The translations under genes were made by a program, and so were the position numbers. A DNA stretch of 64,000 nt from Devosia sp. Root413D1 (GTDB lineage Bacteria > Pseudomonadota > Alphaproteobacteria > Rhizobiales > Devosiaceae): contig NZ_LMEA01000008.1 of the NCBI RefSeq assembly GCF_001425235.1, positions 1 through 64,000 of the forward strand, read 5' to 3'. Below, piece after piece: positions 16,371 through 63,900 of this stretch. The notes below the pieces were generated by a model that was not told the origin of the DNA, did no database searches, and saw nothing but the letters and a program-made list of their open reading frames with translations. How positions within the stretch are numbered: the stretch's first letter is position 1; each line of letters starts with the position of its first letter.

Positions 16371-16551
16371 GCAGTCGGCGGCCCTCTCCCGCTTGCGGGG
16401 GAGGGGGAACCACGCGAAAGCGTGGTGGGAGGGGGTGCCCCACGCACTGACGGTGAGCGGCTGGGGCAGGGCCGGCGTTTGCGGCACCCCCCTCCCACCA
16501 GCATTTCGGCTGGTCCCCCCTCCCCGCAAGCGGGAGAGGGCCGCCGACTGC
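16371..16551. repeat. Large inverted repeat element, 30-bp perfect arms
   Basis: Arms of 30 bases match perfectly at 16371-16400 and 16522-16551. The shared family core is ccctctcccgcttgcgggg. The outer nine bases (gcagtcggc) are unique to this site yet still complementary. Inside are further short hairpins (accacgc-gaaa-gcgtggt; accagc...gctggt). With the hairpin after hmuR it fills the 328-base gap between hmuR and the convergent GntR gene. I see no gene in the gap. Confidence 0.8.
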
Positions 16552-16579
16552 ACGTTCCGCGAGGGGCCGCTAGCCCGAC

Positions 16580-17341
16580 CTACCGCGCGCGACTATTCCG
16601 CGAATCCTGGTCCAGCCGCAACGGATAGCGCGTCGGGTGATGCGTCGAGAGCGTCAGGTTGAGCGGGCGCTCGTTGACGTCGAACGCCATCTGCTCGACC
16701 CCCAGCACCGCCGCCGGCGGTGGCAGCTCCAGCAGCTGGCTCTCCTCGGCATCGGCCAGCCGGGCCGAAAGAATGGTATGGCCGCGTTGCGGCAGCAGCC
16801 CGTAGCGTCCGGCGAGCTCGGCGTAGAGCGAGCTGTTCGGCACGGTCCAATCGAGTTCGAGAATGTCCGGCACGATCGCGGCAGGCATCCAGTCATGCGC
16901 GATGGCCACCGGCTGGTCGTCGATCAGGCGCAGGCGGCGCAGCGAGATCACCTGTTCACCCGCCGCCAGTTGCAGCGCCCGCGCCACCTGCTCTGGAGCG
17001 CTGACCTGCGCCGCTATCAGCAGCCGGCTGCCCGGCCGGCGGCCATGCGCCACGGCCGTGGCGGTGAAGCTGCGCAGCAGTTCGAGCTCGTACACCCCCT
17101 TGGGGCGGCCGGTTGGGTAGAACCCCTTGCCCGGATGGCTGCGCAGGTGCCCCTCGAGCACCAACTCGGTCATCGCCTGCCGGATGGTGATGCGGCTGAC
17201 GCCGTAGAGCTCCACCAGCTCGCGTTCCGAGGCGAGCTTGGCGCGGGGCGGAATGGTGCCGTCATCGAGCGCCCGCAGCAGGCGTTCCTTCACCTGCTTG
17301 TAGAGCGGTAGGGGATCGTCGCGCGTCACGCCGTTGGCCAT
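16580..17341 (-). CDS. GntR-family regulator, UTRA domain
   Basis: This 253-residue HutC-subfamily GntR protein has an N-terminal winged helix (PLYKQVKERLLRALDDG; LASERELVELYGVSRITIRQAMTELVLEG) and a C-terminal UTRA effector domain starting near residue 95. It is divergent from the glycosidase gene, so it probably represses the sugar locus downstream and senses a sugar phosphate, as UTRA regulators commonly do. The 135-base spacer contains an AT-rich segment around 17437-17456 (tatgac and tatgatc half-sites) that could be its operator. ATG start at 17341. Confidence 0.9.
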   Translation of the reverse strand: MANGVTRDDPLPLYKQVKERLLRALDDGTIPPRAKLASERELVELYGVSRITIRQAMTELVLEGHLRSHPGKGFYPTGRPKGVYELELLRSFTATAVAHGRRPGSRLLIAAQVSAPEQVARALQLAAGEQVISLRRLRLIDDQPVAIAHDWMPAAIVPDILELDWTVPNSSLYAELAGRYGLLPQRGHTILSARLADAEESQLLELPPPAAVLGVEQMAFDVNERPLNLTLSTHHPTRYPLRLDQDSRNSRAR

Positions 17342-17476
17342 GGCTTTGGGGTAACCGAACTGATTGCGCTTTGGAAGCGGGCGCCGCGCCCGCCGACGAA
17401 ACTTAGCCGTACGATTCCATCTTGCCTACCTATTATGACTGGATATGATCAGTTGCGCTGAACGGGGGACGTCAGG

Positions 17477-18829
17477 GTGAAACTGGTCGTTGTCGGAGGG
17501 GGAGGGCTACGCGCCCCACTGTTCGTCGACTCGGCATTGCGCCGCGCCGCGCGGACCGGCCTCACCGAAATCTGCCTGATGGATGTCGACGCAGCGCAGC
17601 TAGAGCTGATCGGCGCTCTCGCCACTGAGCTGGCGCGGCGCGCTGGCGGAGCTGTGACCATTTCCACCACCACCGATGCCGAAACTGCCTTTGCCGGCGC
17701 CAGTTATGTGGTGACCACGGTGCGCCCCGGCGGCATCGATGGCCGCATTGCCGACGAGCGCATCGCGCTGTCGCATGGCGTGCTCGGGCAGGAGACCACC
17801 GGGGCCGCCGGCTTCGCCATGGCGCTGCGCAGCATCCCCACAATCCTGAGCTATGCCGAGACGCTGGCCCGGGTCAGTCCTGAGGCCTGGCTGTTCAATT
17901 TCACCAATCCGGCCGGGCTCGTCACCCAGGCGCTGCGCGACTCGGGCTACAGCCGCAGCGTCGGCATCTGCGACAGCGCCAATGGCGCGCAGACCGCCGT
18001 CGCCAGATGGTTGCGGCTGCCCGAGCGCTCGGTGCGGGCCGAGGTGTTCGGCCTCAACCACCTGTCCTTCACCCGCCGCGCCGAAGTGGCCGGGCGCGAC
18101 GTGTTGCCGGACGCGCTGGCTGATGACCGTTTCCTCGCCGGCACGGTGCAGCGGGTGTTCGCGCCCCATGTGGTGCGCCGCCACGGTGTGTGGCTCAACG
18201 AATACCTCTATTACTATTACTACGCCGACGAGGCGGTGGCGGCCGGCGCCGCCGGCCCGACCCGTGGTGAAGAGATCCGCGCCCTCAACCAGCGGCTGTT
18301 GCCACGCTTGCGCCAAGCCGAGCTGCTAGCCGACCCGGGGCAGGCGCTCGATGTCTATTTCGCCTACGAGCGCGAGCGCAGTGCAACCTACATGCAGCAT
18401 ACCCATGACGACGCCGAGCCGGTCGCTGCGGTGGCGCAAAGCCATGATGGTGAAGGCTATGCCGGAGTGGCGCTCGACCTGATCGAAGCGCTGCAGGGCG
18501 GCACGCCGATCCGCACCGGGCTCAACGTCCCCAATGAGGGCGCCATCGCGGGCTTGCGCGACAGCGACGTGGTCGAGGTCAGTTGCGTGGTCGATCACCA
18601 CGGCATCCGGCCGCAGCCGATCGGCGCCATGCCCGATGCGCAGGGCTACCTGGTGAACTCGGTGAAGCACTATGAGCGGCTCACTGTGCAAGCCGTGGCT
18701 GAACGGAGCCGCGCCCTCGCCGTGGAAGCGCTGGTGGCGCACCCGCTGGTGCTGTCCTACTCGCGGGCCGAGCCGCTGGTTGAGAAATTCCTCGCCGCGC
18801 ACGCGGCCCATGTCGGGGAGTGGTTGTGA
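17477..18829 (+). CDS. Glycoside hydrolase family 4 enzyme (6-phospho-glycosidase or related)
   Basis: This 450-residue GH4 enzyme uses an NAD-dependent redox-elimination mechanism in its family. The N-terminal Rossmann strand reads KLVVVGGGGLRAPLF. The Mn ligands expected for the family are C165 (GICDSANG) and H195 (GLNHLSF). NFTNPAG around 141-147 is also conserved. The sequence after the cysteine (DSANGAQ) differs from the motifs I know for alpha-glucosidases, alpha-galactosidases and 6-phospho-beta-glucosidases, so the substrate is open. GTG start at 17477. It is coupled to a PfkB kinase (TGATG overlap) and an ABC importer. GH4 enzymes acting on phospho-sugars usually work with PTS import, so the pairing with an ABC system and a kinase is notable. 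Confidence 0.88.
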   Translation: MKLVVVGGGGLRAPLFVDSALRRAARTGLTEICLMDVDAAQLELIGALATELARRAGGAVTISTTTDAETAFAGASYVVTTVRPGGIDGRIADERIALSHGVLGQETTGAAGFAMALRSIPTILSYAETLARVSPEAWLFNFTNPAGLVTQALRDSGYSRSVGICDSANGAQTAVARWLRLPERSVRAEVFGLNHLSFTRRAEVAGRDVLPDALADDRFLAGTVQRVFAPHVVRRHGVWLNEYLYYYYYADEAVAAGAAGPTRGEEIRALNQRLLPRLRQAELLADPGQALDVYFAYERERSATYMQHTHDDAEPVAAVAQSHDGEGYAGVALDLIEALQGGTPIRTGLNVPNEGAIAGLRDSDVVEVSCVVDHHGIRPQPIGAMPDAQGYLVNSVKHYERLTVQAVAERSRALAVEALVAHPLVLSYSRAEPLVEKFLAAHAAHVGEWL

Positions 18830-19761: not shown

Positions 19762-19838
19762 GCTCGGCGCTATCTTAGTAGTGATTGTCTATAGGATTTG
19801 TAGAGAATAAACACAGACCACAGACAAGGGAGTCCGAG

Positions 19839-21071: not shown

Positions 21072-21094
21072 TCGAAACAGCAGGCCACTCTGCT

Positions 21095-28470: not shown

Positions 28471-28500
28471 TGGGTTGCCCCGGTGACGCTGGCTGGGACG

Positions 28501-28643
28501 CCGGCGAGGGCTGACCCCCACCCCTGTCCCCTCCCCGAGACCCTCTCGAACAGCCTTCGTTTCTCCGACGACCGAGTCAGCGGCTCCTTCGTCTCCCTCC
28601 CCCTTGCGGGGAGGGGACAGGGGTGGGGGTCAGCCCTCGCCGG
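28501..28643. repeat. Inverted repeat element with 37-bp perfect arms
   Basis: Arms at 28501-28537 and 28607-28643 are perfectly complementary over 37 bases. The inner part (cccccacccctgtcccctcccc) is the core shared with copies at 43259, 52339 and 58886. The outer part (ccggcgagggctga) is specific to this locus. The element separates the binding protein gene from the permease genes of the peptide operon, and in RNA it would form a very stable hairpin. Confidence 0.85.
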
Positions 28644-28730
28644 GATTTCAGTCTGCGTCAAATGAGGCTCGTTCGTTCTGATGGTCAGTAGGTAGATAGA
28701 AGGCCGGAGGCGGACCTCCGGCCTGGTAGT

Positions 28731-41090: not shown

Positions 41091-41293
41091 AGACGGCCCC
41101 CTCCTTTGCCATTCGAGCGTAGCTCTCATGGCCTTCTCCCCTCAAATCGCTCCACTGGAGCGATTTGCCCTTCGGGACGGCTCGAAGTCCCCCATGAAGG
41201 GGGAGGTGCCTCGCCGGTGCGTTTGGCACGATCCAGCCACAGCCTCGACTCTTCACCTCCCCCTTTGAGGGGGAGGCCGGGAGGGGGCCGTCT
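41091..41293. repeat. Inverted repeat element (agacggccccctcc family)
   Basis: Outer arms agacggccccctcc (41091-41104) and ggagggggccgtct (41280-41293) are complementary, with inner stems ctcccc...ggggag. The loop contains gcgtttggcacgatc and gcctcgactcttcacctcccc. Both recur in the loop of the copy at 47289-47414, so the loop as well as the arms is conserved. A separate small hairpin (aaatcgctcca/tggagcgattt) lies near 41149-41171. No gene is visible in this 288-base gap. Confidence 0.7.
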
Positions 41294-43244: not shown

Positions 43245-43258
43245 GCGACATGCAGCCG

Positions 43259-43388
43259 CCGGTGGCTGTGGACCCCCACCCCTGTCCCCTCCCCGCAAGG
43301 GGCAGGGAGACCCAAACACTGGCATCGGGTTGATCGTCTCCCTCCCCCTTGCGGGGAGGGATTAAGGGTGGGGGGCAGCCCGCACCGG
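43259..43388. repeat. Inverted repeat element (cccccacccctgtcccctcccc family)
   Basis: Left arm gacccccacccctgtcccctcccc and right arm ggggagggattaagggtgggggg are imperfectly complementary. Short outer arms ccggtg (43259-43264) and caccgg (43383-43388) flank it. Inner stems gtctccctccccc/ggggcagggagac recur in other copies. It sits between the convergent CAP-protein and glpK genes. Confidence 0.7.
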
Positions 43389-43410
43389 CCTATCGGGCAC
43401 CGCCGGCGCG

Positions 43411-44901
43411 CTACGAACTGCTCAGCGTCCGCCGCACCGCGTCGCGCCAACCCTTCAGCTTCCGTGTCCGCTCGTCCTCGTCCATCCGCGGCGTGAATTG
43501 CCGGTCGAGCGCCCAGCGTTCGGCAAAGCCCTGCTGGTCCGGCCATACGCCTGCCTTCCAGCCGGCGAGCCAGGCGGCGCCGAGCGCCGTGGTCTCGAGG
43601 ATGGTCGGCCGGTCGACGGGTGTGTTCAGCATGTCGGCGAGGAACTGCATGGTGAAATCCGAGGCGACCATGCCGCCATCCACCCGCAGCACCGTGTCGT
43701 GTGCACCCTTCCAGTCCTTGCGCATGGCGTCGATCAGGTCGCGCGTCTGGTAGCTGACCGACTCGAGCGCCGCCCGCGCCAGCTCCGCCGGCCCGGTATT
43801 GCGGGTCAGCCCGGTGAGCGAACCGCGCGCCGCCGAATCCCACCACGGTGCGCCCAGCCCGACGAAGGCCGGCACCAGGTAGACGTTCTGTGTCGGGTCG
43901 GCCTTGGCCGCCAGCACCCCGGCATCGCCGCTCTTTTCGATGATTTTCAGCATGTCGCGCATCCACTGCACCGAGGCGCCGGCGATGAAGATGGCGCCTT
44001 CGAGTGCGTAGGTGGTCTCGCCGTTGAGCCGGTAGGCGACGGTGGTCAAGAGCCGGTTCTTCGAGCGCACCATGTCGGTGCCGGTGTTGAGCAGCGCAAA
44101 GCACCCGGTGCCGTAGGTGGATTTCAGCATCCCCGGGCTGAAGCAGGCCTGCCCGATGGTCGCCGCCTGCTGGTCCCCGGCCGCGCCATAGATTGGCAGC
44201 GCCACGCCGAACACTTCGGGGTCGGTCATGCCGAAATCATCGGCATTGTCCTTCACTTCCGGCAGGATGGCGCGCGGGATACGGAACAGTTTCAGCAGCT
44301 CGTCATCCCACTCGCCGGTCTTGATGTTGAGCAGCAGGGTGCGGCAGGCATTGGTGATGTCGGTGGCGTGGCTCTTGCCGCCGGTCAGCCGCCAGATCAG
44401 GTAGCTGTCGACGGTGCCGAAGGCGAGTTCCCCCTTCTCGGCGCGCTTGCGCGCACCCGGCACGTTGTCGAGAATCCAGGCGAGCTTGGTGGCGGTGAAA
44501 TAGGGGTCGAGCAGCAGCCCGGTCTTCTTGCTCACCAGCTTCTCGTGCCCTGCCTTTTTCAGCTTTTCGCAGAGCTTGGTGGTGCGCCGGTCCTGCCAGA
44601 CGATGGCGTTGTAGATCGCCTTGCCGGTCTGCCGATCCCAGACGATCGTCGTCTCGCGCTGGTTGGTAATGCCGATCGCCGCGATCTCGCTGGCCTTGAT
44701 CCCGGCCTTCTTGATCGCCGTCTTGGCGCTCCACAACGCCGTCGCCCAGATCTCCTCGGGCACATGCTCGACCCAGCCATCCCTTGGGAAATGCTGGGTG
44801 AACTCCATCTTGCCGAGCCCGGCGATCTTCTGGTGTTCGTCGAACACGATCGCCCGGCTGGAGGTGGTGCCCTGGTCGATCGCGAGAATGTTGCCGCTCA
44901 T
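43411..44901 (-). CDS. glpK: Glycerol kinase
   Basis: This 496-residue FGGY-family kinase phosphorylates glycerol to sn-glycerol 3-phosphate. Diagnostic segments are [13 protein letters not shown] at the N-terminus, [30 protein letters not shown] and the C-terminal [19 protein letters not shown]. The start ATG 44901 overlaps the glpD stop (ATGA). The product feeds GlpD directly. It is the last gene of the glpR-glpD-glpK operon. Confidence 0.97.
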
Positions 44902-46418
44902 TGTCTCTTCCCCATCTCGGCGAGGCGTTCGGCCATGTACCTGGCCAGTTCCGCCTTCCCGTTTGCTTTGAATTTCAGGCCCTGCTTCGAGCGACGCCAT
45001 AACACGTCGTCGGCGGTCCGCGCCCATTCCCGATCCATCAGGTAATCGACCTCGCGCGCATAAAGCGTTGTGCCGAAATGCTGCCCCAGCTCGGCCGGGC
45101 TCTGTGCCTCGCCCAGCACATCGGCAGCCAGCGTGCCATAGGCCCGCACCAGCCGGCGGACGAAGGCCGGATCGAGGTTCGCCTTTTTCGCCGCGAGCTT
45201 CCGCACCTCGGCCTCGAAGGCGGTGGGCGGAAAGTTGCCGCCCGGCAGGTGTGCGCCCTTGGTCCAGCGTTGCCCCTTCTTGTCGAGCAACCCGTCGATC
45301 TTGTCGACCACCTGCTCGCTGAGCCGCCGATGGGTGGTCAGCTTGCCGCCGAAAACGTTGATCAGCGGCCCGTTGCCGGCCTCGCCCTCGGTCTTCAGCA
45401 CATAATCGCGCGTCGCTTCCTGCGCCGCGCTGGCGCCATCGTCGAACAGCGGCCGCACCCCGGCATAGGTCCAGACGATCTCTTCGCGCGTCACCGGCTT
45501 GATGAAATACTCGCTCGCCGCGGCGCAGAGATAGTCGGTCTCCGCGTCGCTGATCTTGACCCCGGTCGGGTCGCCCTCGAAGTCCTGGTCAGTGGTGCCG
45601 ATCAGCGTGTAGTCGCCCTCGTAGGGAATGGCGAAGAAGATGCGGCCGTCGGCGTTCTGGAAGAAGTAGCAGCGGTCATGGTCGAAGAGTTTTCGGACCA
45701 CGATGTGGCTGCCTTTGACCAGTCGCACATGGTGCGCCTCGTTCCGACCGACCGTCTCGCGGATCACCTGGTCGACCCACGGCCCGCCGGCATTCACCAG
45801 CAGCCGCGCCGAAACCGTCTCGTTACCTGCCGGGCCGACCAGCTCGATCCGCCACAGGTTGTTCTCGCGGCGTGCCGAGACGACCTTGGTCTGCGTCACC
45901 ACCCGGGCGCCCTTGTCGGCGGCGTCGCGGGCGTTGAGCGCCACCAGTCGGGCGTCGTCGACCCAGCCGTCCGAATACTCGAACGCCACCTTGTGTCCCG
46001 GCTTCAGCGGTCGCCCGGCAGGGTCCTTGGTGAGGTCCAGCGTCTTGGTCCCCGGTAGCAGTTTTCGCCCGCCCAGGTGGTCGTAGACAAAGAGGCCGAG
46101 GCGCAGCAGCCAGGCCGGCCTGAGGTTCTTCTCGTAGGGCAACACGAACCGCAGCGGCCAGATGATGTGCGGCGCCGAGGCCCACAGCACTTCACGCTCG
46201 GCCAGCGACTCGTGCACCAGCCGGAACTCGTAGTGCTCGAGATAGCGCAGGCCCCCATGCACCAGCTTGGTCGCCGCAGACGAAGTGCCTGAAGCGAGGT
46301 CATGCATCTCGGCCAGCATCACCGAATAGCCGCGCCCCACTGCATCGCGGGCAATGCCGGTGCCGTTCACCCCGCCGCCGATGACGAACACATCGAACGC
46401 GTCTGCTGCGTCACTCAT
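44898..46418 (-). CDS. glpD: Aerobic glycerol-3-phosphate dehydrogenase
   Basis: This 506-residue flavoprotein oxidises glycerol 3-phosphate to dihydroxyacetone phosphate and passes electrons to quinone. The FAD motif is [19 protein letters not shown] at the N-terminus. [21 protein letters not shown] and YTYAGVRPL-like segments ([13 protein letters not shown]) are typical. A C-terminal DAO_C domain follows. Start and stop overlap its neighbours by four bases each. Confidence 0.97.
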
Positions 46419-47197
46419 CTGGGGGGGAGTCCTTCGCTGGCAATATGGAGCTCGACGCCTGATGCCGCGCAGATCGCGGCGATGGCGGGGGAGGGGGCGA
46501 CGTCGGTGACGAAGACGTCGATCTGCTCGAGGTGGCCGATGCGCACCGGCGCGGTGCGTTCGAACTTCATCGCGTCGGCGACGAGGATGGTCTTGCGCGC
46601 CGTCTCGATGATCGCCTGCGCCACCTTCACTTCGCGAAAATCGAAATCCAGCAGCGTGCCGTCGGCATCGATCGCCGAGGCTCCGATCACCGCATAATCG
46701 ACCCGGAACTGCCGGATGAAATCCACTGCCGCCTCGCCCACCACGCCGCCATCGGCATGCCGCACCACGCCGCCCGCGATCACCACTTCGGCGCTCGGCA
46801 CCTCGCGCAGGATGTTGGCGGCATTGATGTTATTGGTCACCACCAGCAAGCCCGTGTGACGGCGCAACGCCATCGCCACCTGCTCGGTGGTGGTGCCGAT
46901 ATTGAGGATCAGCGAGGACTCGTCGGGGATCAGCGCCGCTGCAACGAGCCCGATCCGGCGTTTGCTCTCCGCCGCCAGCATCCGCCGCGCCTCGTAGGCA
47001 TAGTTCGAAACGCCCGAGGGGTAAGCGGCGCCGCCATGCAGGCGGTTGAGCAGCTTGCGGTCACAGAGTTCGTTCAGGTCCTTGCGGATGGTCTGCGGCG
47101 TCACTGCGAACTGCAGCGCCAGGGTGTCGACATCCACGCGCCCGTGCTGCCGGGCCAGCGCCATGATGTCATCCTGCCGCTGCGTCAGCGCATCCAA
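46415..47197 (-). CDS. glpR: DeoR-family glycerol-3-phosphate regulon repressor
   Basis: This 260-residue DeoR-type repressor has an N-terminal helix-turn-helix (RQDDIMALARQHGRVDVDTLALQF, TPQTIRKDLNELCD) and a phosphosugar isomerase-like sensor domain (LNIGTTTEQVA, VTNNINAANIL). Translation appears to start at TTG 47197, six bases after GGAGG; no ATG is in frame. As the first gene of the operon it would regulate itself with glpD and glpK, being released by glycerol 3-phosphate. A matching operator lies upstream. Confidence 0.92.
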   Translation of the reverse strand: MDALTQRQDDIMALARQHGRVDVDTLALQFAVTPQTIRKDLNELCDRKLLNRLHGGAAYPSGVSNYAYEARRMLAAESKRRIGLVAAALIPDESSLILNIGTTTEQVAMALRRHTGLLVVTNNINAANILREVPSAEVVIAGGVVRHADGGVVGEAAVDFIRQFRVDYAVIGASAIDADGTLLDFDFREVKVAQAIIETARKTILVADAMKFERTAPVRIGHLEQIDVFVTDVAPSPAIAAICAASGVELHIASEGLPPR

Positions 47198-47242
47198 TCC
47201 ATCCTCCGGGAGGTTGGTTCACCTATACGCGGATCAGGTTCG

Positions 47243-47256
47243 TTTCGATAGCGAAA
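47243..47256. promoter_or_regulatory. Candidate GlpR operator TTTCG-atag-CGAAA
   Basis: The inverted TTTCG/CGAAA pair with a 4-base centre lies about 46 bases upstream of the glpR start. Further ttcg copies follow (47260 and near 47271). GlpR operators are built from TTCG/CGAA half-sites, so autoregulation is likely. Confidence 0.65.
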
Positions 47257-47288
47257 TGTTCGGATGAGTTTCGTAATGGAGCCGAAGC

Positions 47289-47414
47289 AGACGGCCCCCT
47301 CCCATCCTCCCCCATGATGGGGGAGGTGCCCTGCTGGTGCGTTTGGCACAATCGAAGACCGGGCCTCGACTCTTCACCTCCCCCCTTGTGGGGGAGGCCG
47401 GGAGGGGGCCGTCT
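47289..47414. repeat. Inverted repeat element (agacggccccctccc family)
   Basis: Perfect outer arms of 15 bases lie at 47289-47303 and 47400-47414. Inner hairpins are ctcccccatgatgggggag and cctccccccttgtgggggagg. The loop carries gtgcgtttggcacaatc and gcctcgactcttcacctcccc, shared with 41091-41293. It lies between the divergent glpR and AEC transporter genes, so it is in the promoter region and not in a 3' end. Confidence 0.75.
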
Positions 47415-47484
47415 CTATCAGTCAGGTCATTGACCCCCGCCTGCATCCCGTGCATCAGGAAACACCTCTCCCGACCGGCCGACC

Positions 47485-48420
47485 ATGCTCGCCATTCTCA
47501 ACGTCATCCTGCCGGTTTTCGCCATGCTCGCGCTGGGCTATGGCGCGGTGCGGCTCAGGCTGTTCCCGTCCGAGGGGGTGCGTGGGCTGGTGGTGTTCGT
47601 GAACAACTTCGCGACCCCGTGCCTGCTGTTCAACGCCATGCTCAACACCGACTTCGCGACGACCTTCAACTGGGGCGTCATCGTGCCGTTCTATATCGGG
47701 GCGATCGTGGTGTTCATCGTCGGCATCGTCATCTCGGCCAAGCTGTTCCGCAACAAGCCGGGCGAGGCCGTCGCTTCGGGCTTTTCGGCCACCTTCACCA
47801 ACACCGTGCTGGTCGGCATTCCCGTGGTGCAGCGCGCCTATGGCGATCAAGCGCTGGCCACCGCCTTCTCGATCATCGCCTTCCATGCCCCGGTGCTGAT
47901 CACCGCCGGCATGATCACCATGGAGCTGCTGCGTCGCGATGGCGCGCCACTGCACAAGACGCTCGGCGTGGCGCTGATGCGGGTGGTTGCCAATCCGCTG
48001 CTCTGGGGCATCGCGCTCGGCGCCGCCGCCAACCTGATGAACGTGACCCTGGTCGAGCCGGCCGAAGCCTTCATCACCATGATGGCCGCCGCCGTCACGC
48101 CTGCTGCATTGTTCGGCCTTGGCGGGGCGCTGAACGACTATAAGCTCAGCGACAGCTGGGGCCAGTCGCTCACCATGTCGCTGCTGAAGCTGCTGCTGCA
48201 GCCGGCCATCGCCTGGGTGATCATGGTGCCGATCCTCCACATCGACCACGATCTCGCCCGCTACGGCGTGCTGCTCGCCGCCATGCCGGCCGGCATCAAC
48301 GTCTATGTCTTCGCCACCTACTACAACCGCTCCGTCCACATCGCCGCCAACAGCATCCTGATCTCGACGGTGCTGAGCCTGCTGACGGTGAGTGGGTGGT
48401 TGTATCTGCTGGGGCTGTAG
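47485..48420 (+). CDS. AEC-family transporter (auxin efflux carrier superfamily)
   Basis: This 311-residue integral membrane protein has about ten hydrophobic helices. Family features are LPVFAMLALGYGAVRL at the N-terminus, a helix break at VNNFATPCLLFNAML, and the second half beginning VVANPLLWGIALG with ALFGLGGAL. Bacterial members export or import malonate, malate and other small carboxylates. The substrate here is not predictable. It is divergent from the glycerol regulon and probably unrelated to it. Confidence 0.88.
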   Translation: MLAILNVILPVFAMLALGYGAVRLRLFPSEGVRGLVVFVNNFATPCLLFNAMLNTDFATTFNWGVIVPFYIGAIVVFIVGIVISAKLFRNKPGEAVASGFSATFTNTVLVGIPVVQRAYGDQALATAFSIIAFHAPVLITAGMITMELLRRDGAPLHKTLGVALMRVVANPLLWGIALGAAANLMNVTLVEPAEAFITMMAAAVTPAALFGLGGALNDYKLSDSWGQSLTMSLLKLLLQPAIAWVIMVPILHIDHDLARYGVLLAAMPAGINVYVFATYYNRSVHIAANSILISTVLSLLTVSGWLYLLGL

Positions 48421-48504
48421 GCCAATCTTCCCTTGCCCCGGTCGTCAGCAATAAGCATGTCGGTGCCGAGTGGCGTGGCATGGTATTCCCATGGGGAGGC
48501 AGAG

Positions 48505-49047
48505 ATGAAGCAGCGAGGCGCGAGGCTAGCTAGCCGCCTTGTGCTTTCCGTGCTGGCGCTGGCCACGATGCTCGGGCCGGTCGATGCGGTGACCGTTGTC
48601 GCCTGCCTGCGAGACGCGTCCGAGATCACGTTTCGGGGCGAGCATGTCGAGACCGTCGCGGCAGGTGTGTTCGATAGTCGGAAGAATCGCATAGTTGCGT
48701 CGTCAGACGGAGATGAAGTCTTCATCGTCGCCAAGGTGAGAGTGTTGGAGCTCGGCGATGTTCCACCCGATGTCCAACCGCCGGCAATCGGTGAGGTCGT
48801 GGGCGTCCTTCAGAGATTGGTGTGCACCCGTTGCGACGCCTCCCGCACCGCGCAACGAGGTGGATACAGCCAGGTGGGGGAGGTTTTGTGGTTCAAGGCA
48901 TCGATAGGCCAGCTCGGCGGTAACGCCGAGTATAAGGACCAGTTCGCCGCAGCGTTGCTTCGCACCGCTGTTAGTTACCAGTTCGCACTCTCGTCCTGGT
49001 GCGACGCATCCACGAAACGCAATTGGAAGTTATGGCAACCGCGCTGA
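48505..49047 (+). CDS. Secreted hypothetical protein
   Basis: This 180-residue protein has a basic N-terminus and hydrophobic core (LASRLVLSVLALATMLGPVDA) that fits a signal peptide. The mature part holds several cysteines, including a CTRC pair near residue 116 and a late C, which could form disulfides. ATG 48505 follows GGGGAGG. I do not recognise a family. Its base composition is less GC-rich and its codon choice less biased than its neighbours, suggesting a lineage-specific or transferred gene. Confidence 0.65.
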   Translation: MKQRGARLASRLVLSVLALATMLGPVDAVTVVACLRDASEITFRGEHVETVAAGVFDSRKNRIVASSDGDEVFIVAKVRVLELGDVPPDVQPPAIGEVVGVLQRLVCTRCDASRTAQRGGYSQVGEVLWFKASIGQLGGNAEYKDQFAAALLRTAVSYQFALSSWCDASTKRNWKLWQPR

Positions 49048-49074
49048 GCCTCGACTGGCGATGACTGGAGCGGC

Positions 49075-49878
49075 CTACTGCGCCGCCTCAACGCTCATCG
49101 CCAGCACCTGCGGCTCGCCGGAGACCGGGATCGAGCGGACCGGCATGGTCGAGGTGGCGTCGAGGCCGACCGCGACACGGACATGCTTGTCGGTCGGGCA
49201 GAGCAGCAGCATCGCGTCGAACCCGATCCAGCCCAGCCCATCATCCCAGGCCTCGGCCCAGGCGTGCAGCGCCGGCTGATCACTGTCGGAGCCGTGGAGA
49301 TAGCCGGTGACATAGCGCGCCGGGATCTCCAGTGCTCGCGCCGCCCCGATAAAGGCATGCGCGTAGTCGCTGGCCGGCGGATGGACGGCAGCTGCCTGCG
49401 ATTGGCTCTGGCTCTGCCCGTCCTGCATCTGCGTCTGCTCACTCCCGCCTACCACTTCGGCGACCCGCGCCATCAGCGCGTGCAGCAAGGCGATGCGGTC
49501 CTGCCCGGTCTTCGGCGCTGCGCGGAATTTCGAGGTAATCGCCCCCGCCGCCTTGGTGGCCGGGGTAGGGCGGCGATAGAGCGCCGGCGGAATGTCGCCC
49601 TGTACCCGGCCGATCACCCCATTGCGGTCGATGGTCTCGACGATCCCGGCGACGGTGATCAGCAGTTCCGGGTCGGGCTTGATCTGGCTCACCAGCTGCG
49701 CCCGGTTGCCGAAGGCATCGACAAAGCTCGCCGCCCTGTCGAAGCCGGGCATCTCGATCGCCCACTCGCGCACCGTCTGTGTCGGCCCGCTCACCGGCGT
49801 CAGCAGCACGTGCTGCACCCCGCGGGCCACGCCGGCGCCAAGTCCAAGGCTCATCGAATGTCGGATAGCGATCTTCAT
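49075..49878 (-). CDS. Transglutaminase-like protein lacking the catalytic cysteine
   Basis: This 267-residue protein has the layout of bacterial transglutaminase-core proteins: an N-terminal beta domain, then the core. The core helix normally reading GxCxDxAH is PPASDYAHAFIGAAR here, so the nucleophilic Cys is Ala169. The His in LHAWAEAW (H205) and Asp in WIGFDA (D221) are kept, as is the following CPTDKHVRVAVGLD segment. A Gln/Ser-rich insert (residues 148-162) precedes the helix. It is the last gene of an operon with alpha-E and circularly permuted ATP-grasp genes, a common set in proteobacteria. It is likely a binding or scaffold form and not an active protease or amidase. Confidence 0.85.
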   Translation of the reverse strand: MKIAIRHSMSLGLGAGVARGVQHVLLTPVSGPTQTVREWAIEMPGFDRAASFVDAFGNRAQLVSQIKPDPELLITVAGIVETIDRNGVIGRVQGDIPPALYRRPTPATKAAGAITSKFRAAPKTGQDRIALLHALMARVAEVVGGSEQTQMQDGQSQSQSQAAAVHPPASDYAHAFIGAARALEIPARYVTGYLHGSDSDQPALHAWAEAWDDGLGWIGFDAMLLLCPTDKHVRVAVGLDATSTMPVRSIPVSGEPQVLAMSVEAAQ

Positions 49879-50822
49879 CAGTAGAAATTGTAGCTTTCGG
49901 CGAGGGCGTCCGTCATCCGGTTGTTGCGGTCGATGAACTCGGTCAGGAACTCGTGCAGGCCATGCTCGAAGATCTTGTCGACACTGGCGTCCATCACCAG
50001 CGCCGTCACCGCATCGGCGGCATCATGCCCGGCCGTGCGTTCGCCATAGATTTCCTCGAGCATATCGATGGTGCGGTTGATCCACTGCACGCAGAAGATC
50101 AGCGAACGCGGCATTTCCGGCCTGAGGATCAGGTAGTCGGCGATGTTCCAGGCCTTGTAGCGGTCGTGGTAGACGTGCCGATAGCTGCGATGTGCCGAGG
50201 CGGCCCTGAGGATCATCGTCCATTGCTGGATATCGACATCGCCGCCCACCATGGTGGCGCGCGGCAGCAGCACATAATATTTCATGTCGAGAATGCGCGC
50301 CGTATTGTCGGCCCGCTCGACGAAGTTGCCGATCTGGCTGAAGGCGTAGCCGGCATCGCGGAGGAAGGTCGAGAGCAGGGCGCCGCGATAGCGATGACTC
50401 ACCTGCTTGACCCAGAACAGCAGCTCCTGGAGCTTGGCCCCCGAGATATCGCGCGGGCGGATGGCCGAGAACTCCAGCCACGCCGCGTTGATCGATTCCC
50501 ACATCTCGGTGGTCAGCGCCGTGCGCACCGACCGCGCATTGGTGCGCGCCGCGAGGAGGCACGACTTAACCGAGGAATAGTTCTCCTCGTCGAACAGCAT
50601 GTAATGCGCGACGCTCGCGACGTCGGCCTGCTTGTGCTTGAGGTTGAACCCCTCATCGGCCTCTGCCGCCTGCAGCATCGACACCAGGTGCTCCGAAGCG
50701 CCCCCCTCGCGCCGCGAGGTGAGGCTCATCCGGTAGCCCACCTCGAACATTCGGGCCATGTTTTCGGCCCGCTCGATATAGCGGCTGAGCCAGAAGAGAT
50801 TCTGTGCGGTGCGTCCGAGCAT
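49878..50822 (-). CDS. Alpha-E domain protein
   Basis: This 314-residue, almost wholly helical protein has the alpha-E family opening MLGRTAQNLFWLSRYIERAE and the repeated FVERADNTARILDMKYY block. The family is found next to ATP-grasp and transglutaminase genes and is thought to belong to an uncharacterised peptide-forming system. The start ATG 50822 is two bases after the upstream stop codon, and its own stop overlaps the next start by one base. The molecular role is unknown. Confidence 0.9.
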   Translation of the reverse strand: MLGRTAQNLFWLSRYIERAENMARMFEVGYRMSLTSRREGGASEHLVSMLQAAEADEGFNLKHKQADVASVAHYMLFDEENYSSVKSCLLAARTNARSVRTALTTEMWESINAAWLEFSAIRPRDISGAKLQELLFWVKQVSHRYRGALLSTFLRDAGYAFSQIGNFVERADNTARILDMKYYVLLPRATMVGGDVDIQQWTMILRAASAHRSYRHVYHDRYKAWNIADYLILRPEMPRSLIFCVQWINRTIDMLEEIYGERTAGHDAADAVTALVMDASVDKIFEHGLHEFLTEFIDRNNRMTDALAESYNFY

Positions 50823-50824
50823 GG

Positions 50825-52243
50825 TCAGTCCTCCAGCACCCAGGTGTCCTTGGTCCCGCCGCCCTGCGACGAGTTCACCACCAACGAGCCCTTCTTCAGC
50901 GCCACGCGCGTCAGCCCACCAGGGGTGATCCGGATATCGTCGCCGCACAGCACATAGGGCCGCAGGTCCACATGCCGCGGCGCGATCCCCTTGTCGACAA
51001 AGGTCGGGCAGGTCGAGAGCGCCAGCGTCGGCTGCACGATGTAATTGTCGGGGTGGGCGAGGATCTTCTTTCGGAATTCCTCGCGCATCGCCTTGGTCGA
51101 GGCCGGCCCGACCAGCATGCCGTAGCCGCCCGAGCCGTGCACTTCCTTCACCACCAGTTCCTCGAGATGCTCGAGCACATAAGCCCGCTCATCGTCATTG
51201 GTGCAGTTGTAGGTGGGGACGTTTTTGAGCAGTGCCTTCTCACCGAGATAGAACTCGATGATCTCCGGCACGTAGACATAGACCGCCTTGTCGTCGGCAA
51301 TGCCGGTGCCCGGCGCATTGACCAGCGTCACGTTCCCGGCCCGATAGGCATCGAACAGCCCCGGCACGCCCAGCATCGAGTCCGGCCGGAAGGTCAGCGG
51401 GTCGAGGAAATCGTCGTCGATGCGGCGGTAGATCACGTCGACCCGCTCGGGGCCCTTGGTGGTCCGCATGTAGACTTTGCCGCCATCGACGAACAGGTCC
51501 TGCCCTTCGCAGAGTTCGGCCCCCATCTGGTCGGCGAGGAACGAATGCTCGAAATAGGCGGAGTTATGGATGCCCGGCGTCAGCACCACGAGGTTGGGTG
51601 AGCCATGCACGCCCCCCGGCGCCACGCTCTCCATCGTCCGGCGCAGCGTTTCGGGGTAGGTCTCGACCGGCGCCACCTTGTAACGCTGGAACAATTCCGG
51701 GGCGAGCTGCAGCATCGCCTCGCGGTTCTCCAGCATGTAGCTGACGCCCGAGGGGGTGCGGAGATTATCCTCCAGCACGTAGAAATCGTCCGGGCCGGTC
51801 CTGACGATGTCGACGCCGATAATGTGCGAATAGACTCCGCGCGCCGGATCTAGCCCCATCATTTCCGGGCAGAACGCCGAGTTGTTGAGGATCAGCTTTT
51901 CCGGCACCCGCCCGGCCTTCAGGATCTCCTGGCGGTGGTAGATGTCGTAGAGGAAAGCATTGAGCGCCCGTACCCGCTGCTCGATGCCCTTCGAAAGCCG
52001 CCGCCACTCCATCGCCGAGATGATGCGCGGGATGATGTCGAACGGGATGAGCTTTTCGGTGCCTTCATTGCTGCCGTAGACGGCGAAGGTAATGCCGAGG
52101 CGTCGGAACAGGGCTTCGGCGTCAGCCGACATCAGACCCAGGGCTTGCGGAGGCTGCTCTTTCAGCCACTCTTCCAGGATGTGGTAGGGCGCGCGGACAG
52201 AGGCATCCGCATTGGTCATTTCGTCAAACGGCGTTGCGGACAT
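50825..52243 (-). CDS. Circularly permuted ATP-grasp protein
   Basis: This 472-residue member of the circularly permuted ATP-grasp family (former DUF404/DUF407) has these typical stretches: FDIIPRIISAMEWRRLSKGI, YVLEDNLRTPSGVSYMLENR, VNAPGTGIADDKAVYVYVPE and VKEVHGSGGYGMLVGP. ATP-grasp enzymes join a carboxylate to an amine or thiol using ATP, and this group is predicted to build small peptides. ATG 52243 is used; a TTG precedes it. It heads the three-gene operon with the alpha-E and transglutaminase-like genes. Confidence 0.92.
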   Translation of the reverse strand: MSATPFDEMTNADASVRAPYHILEEWLKEQPPQALGLMSADAEALFRRLGITFAVYGSNEGTEKLIPFDIIPRIISAMEWRRLSKGIEQRVRALNAFLYDIYHRQEILKAGRVPEKLILNNSAFCPEMMGLDPARGVYSHIIGVDIVRTGPDDFYVLEDNLRTPSGVSYMLENREAMLQLAPELFQRYKVAPVETYPETLRRTMESVAPGGVHGSPNLVVLTPGIHNSAYFEHSFLADQMGAELCEGQDLFVDGGKVYMRTTKGPERVDVIYRRIDDDFLDPLTFRPDSMLGVPGLFDAYRAGNVTLVNAPGTGIADDKAVYVYVPEIIEFYLGEKALLKNVPTYNCTNDDERAYVLEHLEELVVKEVHGSGGYGMLVGPASTKAMREEFRKKILAHPDNYIVQPTLALSTCPTFVDKGIAPRHVDLRPYVLCGDDIRITPGGLTRVALKKGSLVVNSSQGGGTKDTWVLED

Positions 52244-52338
52244 CAACTCCCAAGGGCTTGCGGCCTATCCCACTCGGGACTCATTGGTACACTTTTGCTG
52301 AAAGGCCACAAGCCGGGTTCGGCGTGAATGTCTCGCAC

Positions 52339-52467
52339 CCGGTGCGAGCTGACCCCCACCCCTGTCCCCTCCGCAAGGGGGAGGGAGACGCTTTCATTGG
52401 CGTCAGTGTTTTGGTGTTCCCTCCCCCTTGCGGGGAGGGGACAGGGGTGGGGGGCCACAGCCACCGG
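52339..52467. repeat. Inverted repeat element (cccccacccctgtcccctcc family)
   Basis: Left arm cccccacccctgtcccctcc and right arm ggggaggggacaggggtggggg are complementary. Short outer arms ccggtg and caccgg match those at 43259-43388. The inner stem is caagggggagggaga/tccctcccccttg. It lies in the 313-base spacer between the divergent ATP-grasp and hydroxyacid dehydrogenase genes, with no gene visible there. Confidence 0.75.
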
Positions 52468-52556
52468 CCGACCGACATGATCCTACCCCCACCAACGTCG
52501 CCTTCACCCTCGCGCAAAACTGCCATACAACCTTGCGCCGATAAGGGATGGGACCA

Positions 52557-59372: not shown

Positions 59373-59428
59373 CTGAGTCTCCAATGGACCGGGAGGCATG
59401 TGCCGGAGGATTTGGGCAGGCTTGCGGC

Positions 59429-60481: not shown

Positions 60482-60576
60482 TTGGCGGAACGAGTCGAGA
60501 TGGCTAGGACGCTAACTATCGACGAGTTTGCGCTGCGGGGGAAGCGGGCCGTTGGGCGAATATCGAGTGCTTGGCG

Positions 60577-60703
60577 CCCCTCACCCTAACCCTCTCCCCA
60601 GAGGGGCGAGGGGACGCGTGTGGCACCGCCGGTGAGCCCATCGCCCCCTCGCCCCTCCAAGGGGCGCAATAAGCGCTCCCGGGGAGAGGGCCGGGGTGAG
60701 GGG
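60577..60703. repeat. Inverted repeat element (cccctcaccctaaccctctcccc family)
   Basis: Left arm cccctcaccctaaccctctcccc (60577-60599) and right arm ggggagagggccggggtgagggg (60681-60703) pair with few mismatches. Inner stems are ccagaggggcgagggg and gccccctcgcccctcc. It lies between the AbrB gene and the M20 gene, both of which read left, so it would sit between the M20 stop and the AbrB promoter. Confidence 0.7.
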
Positions 60704-60718
60704 TAGCCCCACGCACTG

Positions 60719-61879
60719 CTATCTCTGCGAAGCACCCTCGACCAGCTTCACGAAAAAACTCACCCCAACCGGGATGATCTCGTCGTTGAAGTTGTAGGTG
60801 TCCGAGTGCAGTTCGGAGCTCGGCCCGTTGCCGAGGAATACGTAAGCGCCCGGCCGCGCCTGCAGCATGTAGGAAAAATCCTCGCCGCCCATCTTGGGGT
60901 CGACATTGGCGTCCACCCGGTCCTCGCCCACCACAGTCGCGGCGATGGCCGCGGCATAGGCCGTTTCGTCCGGCGTGTTTTCCACCACCGGATAGCCGCG
61001 GCGATAGTTCACCTCGGCCTTGCCGCCGAAGGTTTCGACGATGCCCTTGGTCACCGCCTTGAGCCGCTCTTCCATCAGGTCGCGCACTTCGTCGTTCAGC
61101 GAGCGCACCGTGCCGGTGAGCTTCACCTTCTGCGGGATGATGTTGAACGCCTCGCCGCCCTGCATCATCGTCACCGACAATACTGCCGAGCGGATCGGAT
61201 CGATATCGCGCGAGACGATGGTGTGCAGCGCCGTGATCAGCTGCGCCGCGATCATCACCGGGTCCACCGTGTTCTGCGGCCAGGCGGCGTGTCCGCCCTG
61301 GCCTTCGATCACGATGTTGAACTCATCGCTCGCCGCCATCAGGCCGCCGACCCGCATGGCGATGCTGCCGGCTTCCTGGCCGGGCATGTTGTGCAGCCCA
61401 TAGACCTCATCGACGCCGAAGCGATCCATGATGCCGGCTTCCACCATGGCGCGCCCGCCGGCGCCGCCTTCTTCGGCCGGTTGAAAGATCAGCACGGCGT
61501 TGCCGTCGAAATTGCGCGTCTCGGCCAGGTATTTCGCGGTACCGAGCAGGATCGAGGTGTGGCCGTCATGCCCGCAGGCGTGCATGCGGCCGGGCGTCTG
61601 GCTGGCATAGTCGAGGCCGGTGCGCTCGAGGATCGGCAACGCATCCATGTCGGCGCGGATGCCGATATTCTTGCCCGGTCCACGCCCCTTGATCACCGCC
61701 ACCACGCCGCTCTGGGCGATGCCGGTAACCACTTCGTCGACGCCGAACGAGCGCAGCAGCTCGGCCACTTTCCCCGATGTGCGGGGCAGTTCGTACTGAA
61801 GTTCGGGGTGCACATGGAAGTCGCGGCGCCATTCGGCGACCTCGTCGGCGAATTCCGCGATACGATTGATAACGGGCAT
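60719..61879 (-). CDS. M20-family amidohydrolase (HipO/AbgB-like)
   Basis: This 386-residue M20D metallopeptidase-type enzyme contains the metal sites HACGHDGH, FQPAEEGGAGG and the late His of ASSEL-type loops (SSELHSDTYNF). The catalytic Asp lies in ADMDALPI. GGHAAWPQNTVDPV in the lid domain dimer region is conserved in hippurate and N-acyl amino-acid hydrolases. ATG 61879 gives the family N-terminus. The frame to 61951 is not supported. It likely deacylates an N-acyl amino acid or opens an amide. The substrate is not predictable. Confidence 0.92.
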   Translation of the reverse strand: MPVINRIAEFADEVAEWRRDFHVHPELQYELPRTSGKVAELLRSFGVDEVVTGIAQSGVVAVIKGRGPGKNIGIRADMDALPILERTGLDYASQTPGRMHACGHDGHTSILLGTAKYLAETRNFDGNAVLIFQPAEEGGAGGRAMVEAGIMDRFGVDEVYGLHNMPGQEAGSIAMRVGGLMAASDEFNIVIEGQGGHAAWPQNTVDPVMIAAQLITALHTIVSRDIDPIRSAVLSVTMMQGGEAFNIIPQKVKLTGTVRSLNDEVRDLMEERLKAVTKGIVETFGGKAEVNYRRGYPVVENTPDETAYAAAIAATVVGEDRVDANVDPKMGGEDFSYMLQARPGAYVFLGNGPSSELHSDTYNFNDEIIPVGVSFFVKLVEGASQR

Positions 61880-62046
61880 GAAAGACCTGAACGCTAGTAA
61901 GCGCGCACTGTGCGGGGACGAGGGTAGGGCGTCAACCCGTAGGCACGCCATTCTCCCTAACGCCTTCGATGTAGTCAGAAATTCCCCGCTCGAACTTGCT
62001 CCTCCTCGTCATATTTGCCAAACACCCGGCAACACTGGAGGAACCG

Positions 62047-62805
62047 ATGAAAATCCTCGTTGCCGTCAAGCGCGTCGTCGATCACGCGGTGCGCGTCCGT
62101 GTCCGTTCCGATGGCTCGGGCGTCGAGACCGAGAACGTGCGCATGTCGATGAACCCCTTCGACAAGCACGCTGTCGAGGCCGCGGTGCAGCTCAGTGAAG
62201 CCGGCCACGCCACCGAGATTGTCGTCGTCTCGATCGGGCCCAAGCAGAGCAACGACGTCATCCTCACCGCCCTCGCCATGGGCGCGCATCGTGGCATTCT
62301 GATCGAGGCCGATGGCCGCGTCGAAACCCTGGCGGTGGCCAAGCTCCTCAAGGCCGTCGTTGCCGAGGAACAGCCCGATCTGGTGCTGCTCGGCAAGCAA
62401 GCCGTCGACGACGACTCCAACCAGGTCGGCCAGATGCTGGCCGGCCTGCTCGACTGGCCGCAGGCGACCTTCGCTTCGGAGATCAAGGTCACGGGCGACG
62501 GACTCGAAGTTACCCGCGAGGTCGACTACGGCCGCGCCACGGTTGGTGTCTCGCTGCCCGCCATCGTCACGGCCGACCTCCGCCTCAACACCCCGCGCAA
62601 CGCCGCGCTGCCCATGGTGATGAAGGCGCGTTCGAAGCCGCTGGCCGTGCGCCCTGCCGCCGAGTTTGGGGTCGATCTCACGCCGCGGCTCAAGCTCGAG
62701 AAGGTGAGCCCGCCGGCCGAGCGCATGGCCGGGCGCCGGGTCGCCGATGCTGCCGAACTGACCGCAGCAATTCAGTCTGAACTTTCCGAGCTGGAGGCGC
62801 TCTGA
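62047..62805 (+). CDS. etfB: Electron transfer flavoprotein beta subunit
   Basis: This 252-residue small subunit of the electron transfer flavoprotein has the family signature region VKRVVDHAVRVRVRSDGSGVE near the N-terminus. It is followed by MSMNPFDKHAVEAAVQL and the AMP-binding-site stretch GKQAVDDDSNQVGQMLAGLLDWPQ split over about residues 117-140. It passes electrons from acyl-CoA and other dehydrogenases to the quinone pool through ETF-quinone oxidoreductase. ATG 62047 is chosen; its stop overlaps the etfA start (TGATG). Confidence 0.97.
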   Translation: MKILVAVKRVVDHAVRVRVRSDGSGVETENVRMSMNPFDKHAVEAAVQLSEAGHATEIVVVSIGPKQSNDVILTALAMGAHRGILIEADGRVETLAVAKLLKAVVAEEQPDLVLLGKQAVDDDSNQVGQMLAGLLDWPQATFASEIKVTGDGLEVTREVDYGRATVGVSLPAIVTADLRLNTPRNAALPMVMKARSKPLAVRPAAEFGVDLTPRLKLEKVSPPAERMAGRRVADAAELTAAIQSELSELEAL

Positions 62806-63731
62806 TGGCCGTCCTCGTTCTCGCCGAACACGATCTCGGCGTGCTCTCCGCCGCCACGGCCCGTATCGTCGCTGCCGCCGAAACGCTTGGCCCGGTCGAT
62901 CTGCTGGTCGCGGGACAGGACGTCTCGGCCGTTGCCGCCGAAGCCGCAAAGCTTGCCGGCGTTGAGAAGGTGCTCGTTGCCGACAGCGCCGCGCTTGCCA
63001 ACCAATCGGCAGAGGCCGTCGCCGCGCTGCTCGCCCGCCTCGCCGAGCCCTACACCCATATCGTTGCCGCCGCTGCCGCCACCGGTCGCGACGCCATCCC
63101 GCGCCTCGCCGCGCGGCTCGACCTGATGCCGGTGACCGATGTCGTCGCCATCCACGGCCCGACCCGCTTCGATCGGCCGATCTACGCCGGCAATGCCATC
63201 GAGACGGTATCTTCGGGGCAGAGCAAACAGTTGCTGACCATCCGTGCCTCGGCCTTCCGCCCGGCGGCGACAGGCAACAATGCCCCTGCCCATTCCGTCG
63301 ATGCCGACGTGGCGGCGGTCGCCCGTTTCCTCGCGGCGCACCGCACCGAGAGCGATCTGCCGGAACTCTCGACCGCCCAGGTCGTCGTCGCCGGTGGTGT
63401 TTCCTTCGGCTCGGCCGAAAAGTTCGCGCTGGTCTCCGACCTTGCCAAAGTCCTCGGCGCTGCTGTCGGCGCCACCCGCGCTGCGGTCGATGCCGGCTAC
63501 GCCCCCAATGACTGGCAGGTCGGCCAGACCGGCAAGATCATCGCGCCCGACCTCTACATCGCCATCGGCATCTCCGGCGCGCTGCAGCACCTCGCCGGTA
63601 TCCAGGGCGCCAAGAAGATCATCGCCATCAACAAAGACCCCGAGGCGCCGCTAATGAAGATCGCCGATATCGCGCTGGTCGGGGACCTATTCGAAGTGGT
63701 GCCGCAGCTGATTGCGGGGTTGAAACGGTAG
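62805..63731 (+). CDS. etfA: Electron transfer flavoprotein alpha subunit
   Basis: This 308-residue large ETF subunit has the N-terminal Rossmann-like domain (LVLAEHDLGVLS) and the C-terminal FAD domain. The FAD domain carries the signature YIAIGISGALQHLAGIQGAK and ending with NKDPEAPLMKIADIALVGDLFEVVPQL. It forms a heterodimer with EtfB, encoded just upstream with a one-base overlap. Both are required for fatty-acid and amino-acid oxidation. Confidence 0.97.
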   Translation: MAVLVLAEHDLGVLSAATARIVAAAETLGPVDLLVAGQDVSAVAAEAAKLAGVEKVLVADSAALANQSAEAVAALLARLAEPYTHIVAAAAATGRDAIPRLAARLDLMPVTDVVAIHGPTRFDRPIYAGNAIETVSSGQSKQLLTIRASAFRPAATGNNAPAHSVDADVAAVARFLAAHRTESDLPELSTAQVVVAGGVSFGSAEKFALVSDLAKVLGAAVGATRAAVDAGYAPNDWQVGQTGKIIAPDLYIAIGISGALQHLAGIQGAKKIIAINKDPEAPLMKIADIALVGDLFEVVPQLIAGLKR

Positions 63732-63735
63732 GGCT

Positions 63736-63900
63736 GGTGTCTGTGGCCCACCCCCACCCTTGATCCCTTCCCCACAAGGGGGAGGGAGACGCTCACGGCA
63801 GCGTCGGCTCTTGCCTCTCCCTCCCCTTCAAGGGGAGGGTAGCGCAGCTTGGTCCGTAAGGACCGTAGCGGAGCTTGGTGGGGTGGGGCCACATGCACCA
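63736..63900. repeat. Imperfect inverted repeat element
   Basis: Outer ggtgtctgtggccc and ggggccacatgcacc are near-complementary. Inner pairs include cccaccc with gggtggg, plus inner stems of the caagggggaggga/tccctccccttcaagg type. A second small hairpin (ggtccgtaaggacc) lies near 63851-63864. It follows the etfA stop and fills most of the 248-base spacer to the next start codon. Confidence 0.6.

What the first reader, a model, noticed from the sequence alone, without database searches (positions are those of the whole stretch)
16371..63900. Dispersed inverted repeats whose arms extend into locus-specific sequence
Seen: elements at 16371, 28501, 41091, 43259, 47289, 52339, 58886, 60577 and 63736 share GC-rich cores. 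In at least three copies (16371: gcagtcggc; 28501: ccggcgagggctga; 58886: gaagagtac) the perfect pairing continues outward into bases not shared with other copies. A simple insertion of a fixed palindrome would not give site-specific complementary flanks. Inference: insertion into existing hairpins, inverted duplication of target bases, or template-switch repair that keeps the arms matched.
Basis: partly seen in the sequence, partly recalled or inferred. Interest (0 to 1): 0.7.

Follow-up and report, generated by a model that had tools for sequence, protein, structure and literature searches.

The report
Dispersed palindromes with shared family ends
The paired outer arms that looked unique to each site are shared end sequences of several repeated palindrome families scattered between genes of a Devosia bacterium, although one sister copy elsewhere in the genome does seem to have had a neighbouring gene end copied in reverse across the palindrome.

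Summary
The nine inverted repeats are real, but they are not one element: they belong to at least four families of palindromes scattered through a Devosia genome. In the main family (A, 68 copies read) three end types occur, two of which mix freely, so outer arms match no better within an element than between elements (n=52, shuffle p=0.65). Beyond the ends, pairing is at chance. Six of seven empty orthologous sites show no hairpin above the random 95th percentile (the seventh keeps a leftover end), and flanks show no target duplication. Family A resembles CGTC-type REPs in head-to-head pairs; like them it has no known transposase (no RAYT domain in this genome or in 19 of 19 relatives searched). 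Two window copies mark the ends of a 9-kb inversion between species. The template-switch idea holds at one place outside the window: a sister copy of element 16371 carries a perfect 47-nt inverted copy of the neighbouring gene's end, replacing sequence kept by 6 of 7 relatives. Ordinary overall, with one instructive exception.

The parts
16366..16556 (.).
   Evidence: Arms I1/I8; copies L002-L008; gene calls and Pfam
28497..28647 (.). Family A element, R-type end on both sides, with a divergent left inner half
   Evidence: left half differs in alignment
41091..41293 (.). Family B element with an extra palindromic stretch inside one arm (the same extra stretch occurs in own C10 and at the 47289 slot of G003)
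43256..43391 (.). Family A element, G end left and R end right; convergent gap; left end of a 9-kb segment inverted in G011 and G014
47289..47414 (.). Family B element, in a divergent gap
52336..52470 (.). Family A element, R end left and G end right; divergent gap; right end of the inverted segment
58876..59031 (.). Family A element of the K subfamily (GAAGAGTAC ends), convergent gap
60577..60703 (.). Family D element, absent from G011 at the orthologous site
   Evidence: two other copies in held own DNA
63733..63839 (.). Variant of family A with a different right end (grouped apart as 'fam 3')

Best explanation
The repeats are copies of at least four families of dispersed, non-coding palindromes of the REP/MITE kind. 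A family-A element is two half units facing each other. Each half is a short hairpin with a CGTC or GGTC tag towards the centre and a conserved outward tail that finishes in one of three end types. Because the halves are inverted, the element pairs with itself as far as its two ends belong to one type and stops where they differ; that is why pairing reaches further out in some copies (shown). Copies lie between genes, most often in convergent gaps (shown), and were spread by an enzyme acting in trans that I could not identify (inferred; a RAYT is not found). As hairpin-forming DNA they then provoke occasional errors: at L002 a replication template switch copied 47 nt of one flank onto the other side (pattern shown, mechanism inferred), and recombination at the copies at 43.3 and 52.3 kb may have made a 9-kb inversion (coincidence shown, cause inferred).
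For: Ends fall into types R 85, G 31, K 18 of 136, 2 unclassified, with no conserved sequence further out. R and G combine as chance predicts: 23 RR, 27 GR, 2 GG against 25.6, 21.8, 4.6 expected. No arm co-variation in these 52. Inner hairpin in 128 of 136 half units; tag CGTC 61 and GGTC 41 of 113 readable. 0 of 24 own family-A copies lie in called genes; repeat-bearing slots are 21 of 45 convergent, 36 of 276 tandem and 4 of 53 divergent gaps conserved with G014. No Y1 transposase in G000 or in 19 of 19 genus or family genomes. L002. Inversion.
Against: The enzyme is unknown. Loop types of the two halves do match (54 of 58), so some arm repair cannot be excluded. The 68 copies were picked by an exact core on one side, from 92 of the 100 listed exact places, so diverged copies are under-represented. 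In G011 and G014 the inversion joints carry no family-A element. L002 is one case and no reads were seen.
Confidence: 0.78

Rival explanations
1. Template switching at the hairpins routinely copies flanking DNA and keeps arms matched at most copies.
For: L002; one clearly inverted spacer, L009, of 32 readable; matched inner loops 54 of 58.
Against: No co-variation of outer arms in 52 elements, flank pairing at chance in 68, spacer orientation kept in 30 of 32, and of 106 inverted-repeat pairs in own DNA held 7 have private outer arms, L002 alone being long.
Confidence: 0.08
2. The elements are MITEs moved by a DDE transposase whose ends they share.
For: About 130-160 bp, inverted ends, no coding capacity. 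A family-C-like element nested in another repeat in G014 seems to be flanked by a direct repeat of 8-10 nt (read by eye).
Against: No target duplication in family A: 2 of 68, shuffled rate 3.2%. No autonomous element was seen, but no transposase family other than Y1 was searched.
Confidence: 0.3
3. Insertion into existing hairpins: the locus-specific outer arms are the older hairpin of the site.
For: Nested palindromes exist: an extra hairpin in inner loops of a few family-A copies, a stretch inside family B at 41091 and a nested element in G014.
Against: Six of seven empty slots have no hairpin above chance, and the outer arms are family ends.
Confidence: 0.04
4. The L002 extension is an assembly error at a palindrome and not a real rearrangement.
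For: Palindromes are prone to fold-back errors (general knowledge); the reads are not available.
Against: It is a replacement, not an added copy: sequence conserved in 6 of 7 relatives is missing, with CGGCG at the joint.
Confidence: 0.2

Closest known systems
CGTC-tagged REPs (PMC3733652; abstract and passages seen)
   Same: CGTC-type tag beside a short stem with a 4-5 nt loop, mostly head-to-head dimers, most in alpha-Proteobacteria, not associated with transposase genes. Family E at 1257 has the stem ATTCCCGC/GCGGGAAT with loop GAAA; I recall this as like the Neisseria dRS3 repeat, which the paper puts in CGTC-1.
   Different: Family A stems begin with T, not AT, and its conserved tails are about 35 nt and pair with each other, where the paper describes tails of about 3 nt. 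Devosia does not occur in the paper's main text.
REPINs with RAYT transposases (PMC3116915; abstract and passages seen)
   Same: Two inverted REP-like units with a spacer that fold into a hairpin, between genes.
   Different: No RAYT domain in G000 or in 19 of 19 genus or family genomes.
Rhizobium intergenic mosaic elements (RIME; recalled, only the 1995 title seen in a reference list)
   Same: Intergenic mosaic elements of the same order of bacteria, as far as I recall.
   Different: Sequences were not compared.
Quasipalindrome template-switch mutations (PMC7202029: start of abstract in a listing; PMC8794818: abstract and outline)
   Same: A reverse-complement copy that makes a perfect stem in one event, as at L002.
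   Different: At L002 the copy starts from a dispersed repeat, runs 47 nt past its end and takes in a gene end.

Membership tests
CGTC-tagged REP | Terminal CGTC tag (variants known) | tested here: met
   CGTC 61 and GGTC 41 of 113 readable half units
CGTC-tagged REP | Stem of 8-9 bp, loop of 4-5 nt | tested here: met
   Inner hairpin in 128 of 136 half units; loops of GCAA type in most, longer AT-type or inserted loops in others
CGTC-tagged REP | AT at the first two stem positions, almost invariably | tested here: not met
   Family A stem is TCCCTCCCC
CGTC-tagged REP | Short unpaired tail, mostly CCA | tested here: not met
   Conserved tails of about 35 nt that pair
CGTC-tagged REP | Mostly head-to-head dimers | tested here: met
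   68 paired elements read, tags facing the centre; 40 unpaired end matches, chance ones included, were set aside
REPIN | Inverted doublet that folds into a hairpin, extragenic | tested here: met
REPIN | Associated RAYT (Y1_Tnp) gene in the genome | tested here: not met
   0 of 1 own; 0 of 19 genus or family genomes, 1 of 7 others of the order; 5 of 14 control genomes ring
MITE | Target-site duplication | tested here: not met
   Family A: 2 of 68 with 6 nt or more, shuffled rate 3.2%; not tested by script for families B-E
MITE | Autonomous relative with the same ends | not tested
   No transposase family other than Y1 was searched

The most novel reading that the evidence does not exclude
Dispersed palindromes that have no transposase act as repeated substrates of replication errors: stalled synthesis at the hairpin rewrites neighbouring gene edges as inverted copies (L002), now and then turns spacers round (L009) and seeds inversions (43-52 kb), so that the families reshape gene boundaries and may even change end type or spread by template switching and recombination and not by transposition.
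Probability: 0.1. Interest if true: 0.65.

Novelty: new member of a known kind. Interest (0 to 1): 0.33.

Why it matters
It replaces a claim of site-specific arm matching by a simple rule: arms pair as far as the two end types agree. It adds Devosia families to the REP-like repeats without a known transposase, whose way of spreading is an open question in print (PMC3733652, passages). The L002 locus, if reads confirm it, is a natural case of a bacterial hairpin copying the end of a neighbouring gene, with sister genomes that show what was replaced.

Tried and rejected
Insertion into existing hairpins: six of seven empty slots show none above chance, the seventh looks like a leftover end. Inverted duplication of target bases in general: flank pairing outside family ends equals shuffles. 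RAYT: not found. Rfam: 0 matches in the window at gathering scores.

Slot swapping as a sign that one family replaces another: 26 of 61 repeat-bearing own slots are also repeat-bearing in G014 against 23 of 313 others (Fisher p 8e-11), and 13 of 63 against 7 of 312 in G011 (p 8e-7). In 12 of the 26 and 7 of the 13 the family differs. In convergent slots alone there is no significant effect (p 0.11 and 0.64); in tandem slots there is (p 6e-7 and 4e-7), where many gaps are too tight to hold an element. I take limited room as the simplest reading; the data do not prove it.

Lack of the SbcCD hairpin nuclease as the cause of so many palindromes: no SbcD or SbcC over the curated cut-off in 19 of 19 Devosia genomes, but only 13 of 121 genomes of the order have SbcD over it, and the SbcC cut-off is passed by 1 of 14 controls, so it does not set Devosia apart.

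A strict end scan found 7 family-A elements in 483 kb; the profile found 19 there and was used. The ORF list was too noisy; codon-scored gene calls of my own are approximate. Searches on Devosia repeats and Rhizobiales palindromes were seen as listings; in those nothing named these families. A search joining SbcCD, palindrome and Alphaproteobacteria held 0 papers. Searches were seen as listings.

Full report
A scan of named genomes with a window protein returns Devosia records as the nearest, among them D. insulae and Devosia sp. 66-14.

What is there. All nine listed places hold inverted repeats, but not of one family. Copies were collected in own DNA and grouped: family A at 28501, 43259, 52339, 58886 and as a variant at 63736; B at 41091 and 47289; C at 16371; D at 60577. 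Another family, E, lies at 1257. Family A is abundant. Its 21-nt core has at least 100 exact places (the list stops there); at 3 mismatches it has 118 forward and 116 reverse places, but the reversed control pattern has 63 and 73, so the loose count is not specific. A covariance model gives 150 matches over both strands in G000, which is the scoring cap. A profile finds 24 copies in 623 kb of own DNA, 15 hits in 620 kb of G014 and 5 in 620 kb of G011.

The outer arms. I read 68 family-A elements with flanks. They come from loci chosen by an exact core on at least one side (92 of the 100 listed exact places were fetched) and from the window; 40 unpaired end matches were set aside. The 136 ends fall into types R (CCGGTGCGGGCTGA, 85), G (CCGGTGGCTGTGGA, 31) and K (CGGTGCGGGAAGAGTA, 18), with 2 unclassified, and conservation stops about 17 nt outside the common anchor. 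A second classification gives 23 RR, 27 GR, 2 GG, 10 KK and 6 with an unclassified end. R and G combine as chance predicts. Identity of the two outer arms is 0.514 within elements against 0.525 for shuffled partners in the 52 elements with R or G ends only (p 0.65). Over all 68 it is 0.519 against 0.457 (p 0.007), an excess not seen in those 52. At 16-34 nt outside it is 0.286 against 0.280, and a local search in the next 40 nt gives 4.18 against 4.19. So pairing runs further out where both ends happen to be of one type.

Anatomy. Half units carry a short hairpin, TCCCTCCCC-loop-GGGGAGGGA or one pair shorter, in 128 of 136 cases, with a CGTC (61) or GGTC (41) tag of 113 readable, facing the centre. 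Loops are of two main kinds and match between the halves in 54 of 58 elements where both were called; 10 of 68 had an unclassified loop or an inserted hairpin. The central spacer keeps its orientation relative to the asymmetric arms in 30 of 32 readable elements; L009 is clearly inverted and L031 is a near tie. Folding: z -9.6 for 52339 as DNA, z -8.1 for 43259 as RNA.

Place and age. By my approximate gene calls none of the 24 own copies has its midpoint in a gene; 1 of 12 hits in one G014 segment has. Of the nine window elements three lie in convergent gaps, four in tandem and two in divergent gaps. Among gaps conserved with G014, repeat-bearing ones are 21 of 45 convergent, 36 of 276 tandem and 4 of 53 divergent. 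Relatives often lack the element or carry another family at the same gap. Seven slots with 30 nt or less in place of the element have inverted-repeat scores of 5 to 9 (mean 6.4) against 6.3 for random 100-mers with a 95th percentile of 8; the one that scores 9 reads like a leftover R end. Family-A flanks show no target duplication (2 of 68, shuffled rate 3.2%). At E 1e-12 the covariance model matches 12 of 19 genomes of the genus, own included, and 6 of 120 other genomes drawn from the order under stricter filters, at 71-86 bits against up to 149 in G000.

Movement. Y1_Tnp (PF01797), the RAYT domain, is not found in G000 nor in 19 of 19 genus or family genomes; 1 of 7 others of the order has it. 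No other transposase family was searched. Described CGTC REPs lack a dedicated transposase, mostly reside in alpha-Proteobacteria and mostly form head-to-head dimers (PMC3733652, abstract and passages). Family A shares these features but fails two others, AT at the stem start and 3-nt tails, so I call it CGTC-REP-like and do not file it as a member.

The exception. L002 (G000:C11, match at 573188) is a family-C copy. Its arms (L002:1460-1578 and 1623-1741) pair perfectly for 47 nt beyond the family end; the arm score is 101 against 45 for the next pair, and the outer sequence is found only in its own two arms in the DNA held. It folds with z -24. Thirty of the 47 nt are the last nine codons and stop of a DAHP-synthase gene. 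In 6 of 7 relatives the stretch before the next gene, a CDP-alcohol phosphatidyltransferase, reads CCTTGACC.CGCCACG.CGATAGCGTC, where the dots vary; G015 has diverged. In G000 what precedes CGGCGATAGCG is replaced by the inverted copy of the left flank, and that copy also ends in CGGCG; 4 of the 7 relatives have CGGCG there and two have CGCCG. G003 and G011 carry other palindromes at this slot and G014 differs; the other four were not read in full. A switch to the other strand at the hairpin with rejoining at CGGCG explains this in one event. That is my inference, and an assembly error is not excluded. Of 106 inverted-repeat pairs in own DNA held, 7 have private outer arms and this one alone is long. 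A wider scan of 2.76 Mb that includes relatives and distant genomes lists 12 nearly private pairs, L002 the strongest.

Rearrangement. From about 25 to 442 kb of contig C8, alignments of 400 bp or more with G014 and G011 are collinear except for one inversion of 43.4-52.3 kb, whose ends fall at the family-A elements 43256 and 52336. G015 and G001 have the window's order, as has G013 at the 52.3-kb side, with a near-empty slot. The joints in G011 and G014 carry no family-A element. Recombination between the elements is possible but not shown; it is one case.

Verdict. The template-switch idea survives at one locus. I rate this a new member of a known kind, of modest interest.

Noticed in passing
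L002:1460-1741 (G000:C11, about 573147-573428): Family-C copy whose arms run 47 nt into private sequence, including the 3' end of a DAHP-synthase gene, replacing sequence conserved in 6 of 7 relatives.
   Followed up: yes
window 43420-52313: Segment inverted in G011 and G014, both ends at family-A elements; the joints there carry no such element.
   Followed up: partly
orthologous gaps in own, G014, G011: The same gap between genes often carries a different palindrome family in a sister species (12 of 26 gaps occupied in both with G014, 7 of 13 with G011).
   Followed up: partly
L009:1418-1521: Family-A copy with its central spacer inverted relative to its arms, against 30 of 32 in the usual orientation.
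   Followed up: no
L057, L058, L059, L063, L018, L033, L078: Inner hairpin loops of some family-A copies are replaced or extended by a further small hairpin.
   Followed up: no
G014 slot orthologous to window 41091 (L086 about 7946-8401): A family-C-like element nested in another repeat, apparently flanked by a direct repeat of 8-10 nt (by eye).
   Followed up: no
L096 start and L097 end (G003 contigs C35, C79): Draft contigs of the closest relative begin or end inside a palindrome, so copy counts in drafts are low.
   Followed up: no
window 1250-1352: Family E, stem ATTCCCGC with loop GAAA, many copies in own DNA; I recall it as like dRS3/CGTC-1.
   Followed up: partly
genus genomes G000-G018: No SbcD or SbcC over the curated cut-offs in 19 of 19; G002 and G010 have weak SbcD-like and SbcC-like matches next to each other.
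   Followed up: partly
g14b slot orthologous to own C10 about 312984: G014 has short tandem copies of the family-C end motif GCAGTCGGC, again in inverted orientation, where own has a family-A copy.
   Followed up: no
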